Source: Herpetosiphon geysericola (GTDB lineage Bacteria; Chloroflexota; Chloroflexia; Chloroflexales; Herpetosiphonaceae). From it: a stretch of DNA of 64,000 nucleotides. Position numbers and translations under genes: made by a program. The notes under the pieces were generated by a model that was given only the letters and a program-made list of their open reading frames with translations, ran no database searches and was not told the DNA's origin. The DNA is taken from NCBI RefSeq assembly GCF_001306135.1, contig NZ_LGKP01000046.1, positions 1 through 64,000 on the forward strand. Reading direction: 5' to 3'. How positions within the stretch are numbered: the first letter of the stretch is position 1; each line of letters opens with the position of its first letter. Positions 61,015-63,339 of the stretch are shown piece by piece.

Positions 61015-62049
61015 TTGACCTTCATTTTGTTGCTTGATGAAGATCGGGCGTTTTCGGCCACGCTCGCTCGCACTTTAGAGATGGCTAGTTATCGGGTGAT
61101 GCGCGAGTGGACTGAAACCAGCGCCCGCGAAGTTGCCCGCACCCAACAGCCCGACCTGATTTTGCTCGATCTTGAGCTGGGCCGCGAACAAGGCTGGGCC
61201 TTGCTTGATGAACTGGTTGGCTTGGGCTTGCGGGTCATGGTGATGTCGCATCGCAGCAGCGCCGAGGATATTGCCCGTGGCTTGCGTGCTGGCGCGACCG
61301 ATTATATTACCAAGCCCTATCGCACTGAAGAATTGCTGGCACGGATTGCGATTCGCTTGCGCCAAGCCCCGCCACCTTCCCTGCAACGCGCCGATACCCG
61401 TGCGCCCAAATTGGCAGCCGAGCCTATAATCGAAACGCCTGAGCCTGAACCAGTGGTTGAGGTCGCAGCGCCTGCCTTGAATATTCCGCTTGGTCAGCGA
61501 CTGCGCCAAGCTCGCAAGCAGCGCAATATCTCGCTCGTCCAAGCCAATTTGGATACTAAAATCCAAATGTACTATATTCAGGCAATCGAAGAAGAAAAAT
61601 ATGCCTTGTTGCCGCGTGGCAGCGCCGCCGAAGAAATTGTGCAACGTTATGCCCAATTTTTGAGCGAAGATCCAGCCCAGGCCTTGGCCGAGTTTCGGCG
61701 TTTACACCATAGCGATGTTGAAACCCTCCGCAATTTGGGCGGTCAGCCAGTGCGCTATCAACGCCGAATTTCGTGGCCGTTGGTTTTGAGCCTCGTGGCG
61801 CTGTTAACTTGTGGCTTGGGTTCAGGCGCAATTGCCCTGCTCTTCCCTGAAGAAATGCGCAACGTCACAACCAACGTGCGGGCGATGTTCAGCGACCCAA
61901 CCGCCACGCCAACGCTCACGCCAACGCCGACGGCGACTCCAACATTAACCCCAACGCTCACGCCGACGGCAACCCCCAGCCCAACGCCAACAGCAACGCC
62001 AGAACCAAGCCCAACCCTTGATCCAAATGCGCCAACGGCGACGCCTTAA
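61015..62049 (+). CDS. Receiver-domain protein with RodZ-like HTH, one membrane helix and Thr/Pro tail
   Basis: A 344-residue protein if started at TTG 61015 (AGGA about 9 bases upstream); TTG 60994 is an alternative. The receiver domain (about 1-118) has the acidic pair DED, phospho-acceptor Asp in LILLDLELG, MSHRSS and the Lys of ITKPY. After a Pro/Glu linker comes a RodZ/HTH_25-type domain (about 155-235; LGQRLRQARKQRNISLVQANLDTKI split at 160-184). One transmembrane helix (about 255-277) and an exported Thr-Pro tail (about 295-344) follow. This links a cytoplasmic phosphorelay input to the envelope. It may act with the two PAS-STAS proteins. Confidence 0.78.
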   Translation: MTFILLLDEDRAFSATLARTLEMASYRVMREWTETSAREVARTQQPDLILLDLELGREQGWALLDELVGLGLRVMVMSHRSSAEDIARGLRAGATDYITKPYRTEELLARIAIRLRQAPPPSLQRADTRAPKLAAEPIIETPEPEPVVEVAAPALNIPLGQRLRQARKQRNISLVQANLDTKIQMYYIQAIEEEKYALLPRGSAAEEIVQRYAQFLSEDPAQALAEFRRLHHSDVETLRNLGGQPVRYQRRISWPLVLSLVALLTCGLGSGAIALLFPEEMRNVTTNVRAMFSDPTATPTLTPTPTATPTLTPTLTPTATPSPTPTATPEPSPTLDPNAPTATP

Positions 62050-62058
62050 GGAGTTTAT

Positions 62059-63339
62059 ATGTCAATCAAAGCTGATCGCTGGATTAAGCGCATGGCCCAA
62101 GAACACGGCATGATCGAGCCATTTATCGATGGCCAAGTGCGCGGCGGAGTCGTCTCCTATGGCTTGTCGTCGTATGGCTACGATATTCGGATCGCCGATG
62201 AATTTAAAATTTTCACCAATGTCAATTCGGCAATTATCGACCCCAAAAACTTCGATCCGCGCTCATTCGTCGATGTCAAAGCTGATGTCTGTATCATTCC
62301 ACCAAACTCGTTTGTGCTCTGCCGCACCATCGAATATTTCCGCATTCCGCGCAATGTGCTGTGCGTGTGCGTCGGCAAATCAACGTATGCACGCTGTTTT
62401 AGCGGCGATACTCGGGTCGCGCTGGTTGATGGCACAAACCCAACCTTGGCGGAAATGGCTAAACGCTCAGAGCAAGGCGAGCTATTCTGGGGCTATAGCA
62501 TTGGGCCAAATGGCCGAATCATTGTGACGCTGCTTGAACAGCCACGCTACATCGGGCGCGACAGCTTGCTGGAAATCACGCTTGATAATGGACAGACCAT
62601 CCAATGCACTCCTGATCATGAGTTTATGCGGCGCGATGGCACGATGGTGCAAGCAGCCAATTTGCGGCCAAACGATTCTTTGATGCCCTTATATCGCCAA
62701 CTTTTTCGTGGCTATGAAATGGTCTATCAATTGATCAATGGCCATTATTTCCCAACCCATCGCCTAGCCGATGAATGGAATCTTCGCCATAATATTTATG
62801 CCGAGCAAGCTCATACCCATCGCCATCACATTGACCATGATCGCCTCAACAACCAACCATGGAACATCATGCGCATGGATGCTGAGTATCGCCAATTGCG
62901 TCAACCAGCAACTTTGCAATCAATCCAGACGTTAAATGATCAGCGCAATCAGACCAATCAACAGCATTACCGTCAAGCGCCAGTTGGGCAGCACACGCCC
63001 CAACCAGTCAACCACAAAATCACCGCGATCAAGGAATTGGCTGGCACACACGATGTCTATTGTTTATCGGTGCCTGAAGCTGGCAACTTTGCGCTTGATG
63101 CAGGCGTTTTTGTTTCAAACTGTGGTCTGATCGCGAATGTAACGCCCTTCGAGCCAGGCTGGGAAGGCTACGTGACGATCGAAATTAGTAATACCACCCC
63201 ATTGCCAGCCAAAATCTACGCCAACGAAGGCATCGCCCAAGTGCTGTTTTTCGAGGGCGATGAGTTGCCAGAAGTGGCCTATGATGATCGTTCGGGCAAG
63301 TATCAAGGCCAAACAGGCGTAACCTTGCCGCGAATTTAA
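62059..63339 (+). CDS. dcd: dCTP deaminase containing an in-frame intein
   Basis: A 426-codon gene with AAGGAG 5 bases before the ATG. Residues 1-112 and 355-426 together give a 184-residue dCTP deaminase, the normal length. The catalytic segment GKSTYAR (Ser and Arg equivalent to E. coli Ser111 and Arg115) ends the first part. [14 protein letters not shown] and the catalytic Glu of VTIEISN start the second. The 242 residues between carry intein motifs. Family role: dCTP to dUTP (some members also form dUMP) for thymidylate supply. The unspliced protein should be inactive because the catalytic residues are split. Confidence 0.92.
62395..63120 (+). other. Intein (242 aa) with HNH-like endonuclease core
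   Basis: It starts with Cys113 (block [11 protein letters not shown]) and ends with Ser-Asn354 before the +1 Cys355. Block B has QCTPDHEF with the TxxH-type His. Block F reads [19 protein letters not shown]. The terminal dipeptide is Ser-Asn in place of the common His-Asn. The middle contains [20 protein letters not shown] (about residues 254-273), an HNH-type core with His256, His257 and Asp259. The insertion lies right after the catalytic Arg of Dcd. Confidence 0.92.

What the first reader, a model, noticed from the sequence alone, without database searches (positions are those of the whole stretch)
62059..63339. Intein inserted at the active site of dCTP deaminase
The Dcd reading frame is split after the catalytic Arg (STYAR) by 242 residues starting with Cys and ending Ser-Asn before Cys+1. 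Removing it restores a normal 184-residue enzyme with the catalytic Glu downstream. Splicing is therefore required for activity, making dUTP/dTTP supply dependent on protein splicing. Known inteins favour such conserved catalytic sites (established), but Dcd is an uncommon host as far as I can recall.
Basis: partly seen in the sequence, partly recalled or inferred. Interest (0 to 1): 0.75.

Follow-up and report, generated by a model that had tools for sequence, protein, structure and literature searches.

The report
Shrunken intein in dCTP deaminase
A self-removing protein segment (an intein) interrupts the active site of a nucleotide-making enzyme in a Herpetosiphon bacterium; it has lost most of the DNA-cutting part that once let it spread but still looks able to splice, and it belongs to a family already known from a phage and now seen in several bacterial phyla.

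Summary
Confirmed. ORF 62059-63339 (+, 426 aa) is a dCTP deaminase split after residue 112 (GKSTYAR|C) by a 242-residue class-1-type intein (62395-63120); removing it leaves 184 residues. Two sister Herpetosiphon genomes carry the intact 184-aa gene, so the junctions are exact. (1) This is a decayed copy: a sister species has a 378-residue version with an HNH core, a downstream His-Asn motif and a C-terminal HTH-like stretch; the window copy keeps only the HNH core, and another sister has deleted that too. (2) In the three shrunken copies the splicing parts vary at 70 silent but 1 amino-acid-changing codon, the endonuclease remnant at 28 and 14: indirect evidence that splicing works. (3) Dcd is not a rare host: 24 distinct inteins sit at this exact site, in Chloroflexota, Proteobacteria, an acidobacterial MAG and cyanophage CL131, whose intein was shown in print to excise. 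Haloarchaeal Dcd inteins, also published, sit at another nearby site. G000 has one Dcd and no dCMP deaminase was seen among its PF00383 hits, but dependence of dTTP supply on splicing is unproven. New member of a known kind; the within-genus series of empty, full and shrunken alleles is its main interest.

The parts
62059..62394 (+). N-extein: Dcd residues 1-112, ending ...VGKSTYAR (catalytic Arg112)
   Evidence: 99% identical to uninterrupted Dcd of two sister genomes
62395..63120 (+). Intein, 242 aa (precursor residues 113-354), Cys1 to Asn242
   Evidence: PF14890, TIGR01445, TIGR01443 over cut-off; absent from empty alleles; Hint fold in model
62395..62778 (+). N-terminal splicing part (precursor 113-240): Cys1, block-B TPDH at precursor 184-187
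   Evidence: alignment A1: C1, T72, P73, D74, H75 in 24 of 24; among three shrunken copies 57 silent and 1 amino-acid-variable codons
62779..62886 (+). Stump of the HNH endonuclease (precursor 241-276, with [24 protein letters not shown] at 253-276), lacking the downstream HxxxHN motif of full-length relatives
   Evidence: 14 silent and 5 amino-acid-variable codons among up to four copies; beta-beta-helix in model
62887..63018 (+). Low-conservation remnant (precursor 277-320, ending PVNHK) in place of the about 175-residue endonuclease/HTH-like part of the 378-aa allele
   Evidence: residues 281-320 have 13 silent and 9 amino-acid-variable codons among three copies
62819..62825 (+). Direct repeat ATCGCCA, copy 1; the 69-bp deletion seen in sister genome G003 fits recombination between such repeats
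62888..62894 (+). Direct repeat ATCGCCA, copy 2 (69 bp downstream)
63019..63120 (+). C-terminal splicing part (precursor 321-354), with [23 protein letters not shown]
   Evidence: TIGR01443; 14 silent and 0 amino-acid-variable codons among four copies
63121..63339 (+). C-extein: Dcd residues from Cys+1 (precursor 355-426) with catalytic Glu375, plus stop

Best explanation
The gene makes one 426-residue precursor. The Hint-fold intein excises itself by the class-1 pathway: N-S acyl shift at Cys1, transthioesterification by Cys+1, cyclisation of Asn242, then S-N shift. This ligates Arg112 to Cys355 and gives a 184-residue dCTP deaminase (a trimer, from established knowledge of the family). The precursor should be inactive because the insert separates Arg112 from the strand that carries Glu375. 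The intein entered as a mobile HNH-endonuclease intein. The window copy has since lost most of the endonuclease and should no longer home; it persists because precise loss is hard and failed splicing would destroy the only dcd gene. Shown: anatomy, exact empty site, full-length relative, selection pattern. Inferred: actual splicing in this organism, chemistry steps, inactivity of the precursor, loss of homing.
For: Profile hits over cut-off. Exact empty alleles in 2 of 6 Herpetosiphon genomes. High-confidence intein model (mean pLDDT 88.5, pTM 0.81) whose best Foldseek matches are DnaE, DnaB and RecA inteins. Cys1, TPDH and Asn242 invariant in 24 of 24 aligned inteins. Among the three shrunken Herpetosiphon copies, splicing parts 70 silent and 1 amino-acid-variable codons, remnant 28 and 14 (Fisher p 2.1e-6, codons taken as independent). 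Complete HNH core, HxxxHN and HTH-like stretch in 15 of 24, not in the window copy. The same-site phage CL131 intein was shown in print to excise in E. coli (PMC6293099; passages and section 11 read).
Against: No direct splicing data for this protein. The penultimate residue is Ser rather than His, and block F reads GNF; but Ser stands there in 12 of the 24 aligned, window and the 378-aa sister copy included. The HNH stump gives no Pfam HNH match at E up to 1, and neither does the 378-aa sister copy. The model of the whole precursor is poor (mean pLDDT 47.2), so nothing is shown structurally about the unspliced state. The phage relative is only 32% identical.
Confidence: 0.95

Rival explanations
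1. The intein is domesticated: splicing is conditional and serves as a switch on dCTP deamination, which is why the splicing domain is kept after homing was lost.
For: Strong purifying selection on the splicing parts after loss of most of the endonuclease; sits at the catalytic Arg; Cys1 and Cys+1 could respond to redox or metals (known for some inteins, recalled).
Against: The same selection is expected simply because unspliced Dcd should be inactive. Two of the six Herpetosiphon genomes live without it, and of 40 genomes of the order or nearer with a match, 31 show a Dcd frame of 187-284 aa, too short to hold it, so it is dispensable.
Confidence: 0.05
2. The copy is still a homing element: the retained HNH core is enough, alone or helped in trans by a full-length copy, to cut empty dcd alleles.
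For: The [10 protein letters not shown] core survives in the window copy and its beta-beta-helix is modelled with high confidence.
Against: The downstream HxxxHN motif and the HTH-like stretch, which with the core define the 15 complete copies, are gone; the remnant is relaxed; in G005 the core has an H to Y change.
Confidence: 0.03
3. The insert no longer splices and the cell uses an unspliced or cleaved Dcd, or does without it.
For: Penultimate His missing.
Against: Ser there is common in the family (12 of 24, window included); the codon pattern shows selection on the splicing parts; single dcd in the genome.
Confidence: 0.02

Closest known systems
Dcd intein of Aphanizomenon phage vB_AphaS-CL131 (gp069, PMC6293099)
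   Same: Same host enzyme, same junction (YAR|C...N|CG), HNH core plus a similar C-terminal HTH-like/RRFP stretch
   Different: 352 residues as cut (the paper gives aa 133-483), HNH_3 match over cut-off, Lys penultimate, 32% identical; in a phage
Dcd inteins of Gammaproteobacteria (Thiofilum, Halochromatium, Chromatium, Azomonas and others), a Rhodocyclaceae MAG, a Chloracidobacterium MAG and five other genomes of the same Chloroflexota order
   Same: Same site, 58-73% identical to the window intein, same HNH+HTH-like layout where complete
   Different: Of the 24 aligned (phage and Herpetosiphon included) 15 are complete; 9, including the window copy, are shrunken
Haloarchaeal dCTP deaminase intein ('dtd' allele, PMC4071816; passages seen)
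   Same: Host enzyme, region next to the active site
   Different: Different site (VVHA|S...N|TAG, Ser1 and Thr+1 as read from 4 genomes), larger frames of 688 aa or more. That these 4 are the published allele is inferred
GyrB, RtcB and NrdD-like inteins beginning mostly CF(T/S)GDT
   Same: Related splicing domain (about 29-46% identity; NCBIfam NF052663 E 3e-45). Host names other than NF052663 are my reading of the flanks
   Different: Other host proteins; far below that model's cut-off (155 of 1050 bits)
Npu/Ssp DnaE and Ssp DnaB inteins
   Same: Hint fold and splicing layout (Foldseek E from 1.6e-8)
   Different: About 13-18% identity, other hosts

Membership tests
Class 1 intein | Nucleophile (Cys/Ser/Thr) at position 1 | tested here: met
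   Cys1, 24 of 24 in alignment A1
Class 1 intein | Block B TxxH | tested here: met
   TPDH 72-75, 24 of 24
Class 1 intein | C-terminal Asn followed by Cys/Ser/Thr +1 | tested here: met
   Asn242 24 of 24; +1 codon is TGT or TGC (Cys) in all 24 distinct filled genes
Class 1 intein | Penultimate His (usual, not obligatory) | tested here: not met
   Ser241; S 12, H 9, R 2, K 1 of 24. Active exceptions are known (recalled), and the excising CL131 intein has Lys
Class 1 intein | Hint fold | tested here: met
   Model mean pLDDT 88.5; top Foldseek hits are inteins
Class 1 intein | Homologues lacking exactly the insert | tested here: met
   21 distinct uninterrupted dcd genes fetched, two in the same genus; L091 among them has a frameshift further downstream
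Class 1 intein | Splicing activity | not testable with these tools
   Only indirect codon evidence
HNH homing endonuclease (active) | Complete HNH motif with downstream HxxxHN and a DNA-binding part | tested here: not met
   Window copy: core only; no HxxxHN, no HTH-like stretch (motif patterns of my own); no Pfam HNH hit
dCTP deaminase (Dcd) | TIGR02274 above cut-off | tested here: met
   156 bits against 92.8
dCTP deaminase (Dcd) | Catalytic Arg and Glu either side of the insert | tested here: met
   Arg112 and Glu375 align with residues 106 and 129 of chain 4a6a, the catalytic residues as I recall them for the mycobacterial enzyme

The most novel reading that the evidence does not exclude
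After losing homing, the mini-intein has become a conditional splicing switch that ties dCTP deamination, and so the dCTP/dUTP balance, to a cellular signal. The evidence does not exclude this, but necessity of splicing explains the same data.
Probability: 0.05. Interest if true: 0.65.

Novelty: new member of a known kind. Interest (0 to 1): 0.36.

Why it matters
One gene in six Herpetosiphon genomes shows several states of the intein homing cycle side by side: empty, full-length with endonuclease, shrunken, and shrunken further. This makes gain, decay and loss of an intein testable between close relatives. It also shows that Dcd, with at least three insertion sites near the active site, is a regular intein host in bacteria, archaea and phages.

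Tried and rejected
Viral vector for this intein: 80 IMG/VR loci were kept of 268 confirmed; only 3 of the 80 (L125, L134, L144) are Dcd inteins at this site, and L125 and L134 gave the same values, so no near donor was found. Of 104 phage records with a match, 40 were listed; among those only CL131 had a match covering the insert.

Conversion tract: the 11 codons right after the junction are invariant in all six Herpetosiphon dcd genes. The chance of this at that place is 0.0025, but a run that long anywhere has probability 0.185, so I do not press it.

Intein tree against extein tree: the intein tree has only 3 starred inner branches of 20, too weak to map transfers; the spread over phyla is stated from presence alone. 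Chromatium okenii and Thiodictyon inteins fall in different groups although their Dcd group together (90/75), but supports are middling.

First codon count: one search gave 18 amino-acid-variable codons in the remnant (p 1.2e-7), but 4 of them (residues 277-280) compared the shrunken copies with unrelated positions of the 378-aa copy. recounts: 14 with three shrunken copies (p 2.1e-6), or 14 with the four-copy count stopped at residue 276 (p 4.6e-6); the HNH stump alone gives 14 silent and 5 (p 0.003). The dN of the HNH region has the same flaw in pairs with G004.

Whole-precursor structure: mean pLDDT 47.2, no use for the unspliced active site.

Considered and rejected: Hedgehog or bacterial intein-like domain (those lack this downstream extein and +1 context, recalled); frameshift or assembly artefact (two genomes with the same 242-residue layout); split or trans-splicing intein (one continuous ORF).

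Not tested: ribonucleotide reductase, thymidine kinase, dimeric or MazG-type dUTPases.

Full report
What is there. The ORF at 62059-63339 (+) codes for 426 residues. Residues 1-112 and 355-426 are dCTP deaminase (PF22769, TIGR02274) and residues 113-354 are an intein (PF14890, TIGR01445, TIGR01443), all over their curated cut-offs. Against solved Dcd 4dhk the two flanks match one continuous chain with no gap at KSTYARCG. Against chain 4a6a the alignment pairs Arg112 with residue 106 and Glu375 with residue 129; that these are the catalytic Arg and Glu is recalled knowledge.

Exact junctions. The six genomes of the genus searched (G000-G005) each have a dcd matched by the query. The products are 426 aa (G000, G005), 403 aa (G003), 562 aa (G004) and 184 aa without intein (G001, G002). 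G004's gene is identical to that of Herpetosiphon llansteffanensis CA052B (L016), which places the window in Herpetosiphon, Chloroflexota. The inserts are 242, 242, 219 and 378 residues.

A decaying homing intein. The 378-residue allele has an HNH-like core, a following AHIKHHN motif and a C-terminal TGSIRGAARLLDCDRSVFRRFP stretch that I read as a helix-turn-helix; 15 of 24 aligned same-site inteins have all three by my patterns. Of eight inteins scanned against Pfam, HNH_3 passes its cut-off only in the phage CL131 copy; the 378-aa allele gives no HNH match. The window copy keeps the core [10 protein letters not shown] and then has about 39 unrelated-looking residues where the long allele has about 175. 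In G005 residue 256, in the core, is Tyr instead of His. G003 lacks the core through a 69-bp gap whose ends in the window sequence are two ATCGCCA repeats. In the 378-residue allele, third-position GC of that long part is 0.20, against 0.40-0.57 elsewhere in the gene.

Selection. Among the three shrunken Herpetosiphon genes, the splicing parts have 70 silent and 1 amino-acid-variable codons, the exteins 54 and 1, and the endonuclease remnant 28 and 14 (Fisher p 2.1e-6, splicing parts against remnant, taking codons as independent). With the fourth, full-length copy added the splicing parts have 75 and 2 and the exteins 64 and 2; the remnant count was inflated by four misaligned codons and is replaced. 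Between G000 and G005 the N-terminal splicing part has 45 silent and 0 replacement differences. This is what a splicing-competent intein in a needed enzyme should show.

History. Two flanking genes split the genus into {G000, G002, G004} and {G001, G003, G005}, with dS of 0.07-0.34 within and 0.52-1.13 between. Each group has one empty and two filled alleles, so gain or loss happened more than once, or filled and empty alleles have been exchanged. Intein dS between G003 and G005 (0.66 in the N-terminal part, 0.31 in the short C-terminal part) exceeds that of their extein (0.23 and 0.17) and lies at or above the flanks (0.12, 0.30), suggestive of separate intein histories but noisy. Both empty Herpetosiphon alleles have Arg codon AGA at the junction; the 19 other empty alleles read and 23 of 24 filled ones have CGN, the exception being phage CL131. 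I cannot explain this.

Distribution. In the scan of species genomes by six peptide patterns, 60 loci were confirmed; 17 (L016-L031, L058, the last cut by a contig end) are Dcd inteins at this site, and the rest are mostly GyrB-, RtcB- and NrdD-like hosts, judged from flanking sequence. In 400 Chloroflexota genomes, 40 genomes of the window's order or nearer have a match; 9 are interrupted here (G000, G003, G004, G005, G017, G064, G207, G215, G347) and 31 show a Dcd frame of 187-284 aa; I read the junction itself only in fetched loci. Three of 80 viral loci carry it, as does phage CL131. In haloarchaea, 4 of 16 searched genomes have a Dcd intein at another site.

Structure. The intein alone is modelled well (mean pLDDT 88.5; stretches under 50 are 169-173 and 191-200, in the remnant) and matches known inteins. 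The precursor model is poor.

Dependence. G000 has one Dcd, no PF00692 dUTPase, a frame with two ThyX-family (PF02511) matches over cut-off, one of which scores below the NCBIfam thyX cut-off, and two PF00383 hits: a cytidine deaminase over cut-off and a RibD-like stretch, of which I scanned only the 97 matched residues, below the full-length cut-off. So Dcd may matter a great deal for dUMP, and may even be bifunctional, but reductase and salvage routes were not tested.

Literature. Searches of open PMC papers: intein + dCTP deaminase (4 papers), intein + deaminase + Halobacteria + homing endonuclease (2), intein + Herpetosiphon (0), intein + deoxycytidine triphosphate deaminase (2), inteins + Chloroflexi + homing endonuclease (4), a five-term search on mini-inteins (0), intein + dcd (6, unrelated as far as the listing shows). 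PMC6293099 (passages, section 11) and PMC4071816 (passages) report Dcd inteins; PMC7412058 (passages) speaks of terminase inteins. The other papers were seen as listings only. In these searches I found no report of the bacterial chromosomal Dcd inteins; subscription papers and intein databases were not searched.

Verdict. A sound observation and a largely sound reading. It is a new member of a known kind, with a good natural allele series.

Noticed in passing
L021 (Chromatium okenii DSM 169, NZ_NRRQ01000014.1), ORF of 835 aa: Dcd with two inteins separated by only five extein residues (STYAR): a 411-aa intein, LAGLIDADG-like by my reading, at GK|C...HN|S and a 234-aa intein at the window's site; strain LaCa (L019) has only the second at this place.
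   Followed up: partly
L005 and L006, dcd junction: Both empty Herpetosiphon alleles use the Arg codon AGA at the insertion point, unlike the other 19 empty alleles read; perhaps a homing-resistant target or a trace of intein loss.
   Followed up: partly
L077, L079, L080 (G000 contigs C23, C9, C8): Three further PF14890 places in the window's genome, two over the cut-off, read from the ORFs as inteins in a DnaB-like helicase (mini), in GyrB (apparently Ser1) and after a GGGK P-loop of another protein; host names are my reading.
   Followed up: partly
G000:C14:43554-44825 (L187, L188): One 548-aa frame with two successive ThyX (Thy1) matches, a possible duplicated thymidylate synthase domain.
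   Followed up: no
L203-L206 (haloarchaeal genomes): Dcd inteins with Ser1 and Thr+1 at a second site, seven residues beyond the Arg of GRSSLGR.
   Followed up: partly
L091 (Chloroflexota genome G325): An uninterrupted dcd with a frameshift a few codons after the junction position; sequencing error or decaying gene not settled.
   Followed up: no
window 61910-62048: The gene just upstream of dcd ends in a long Pro/Thr-rich run (PTLTPTATP repeats).
   Followed up: no
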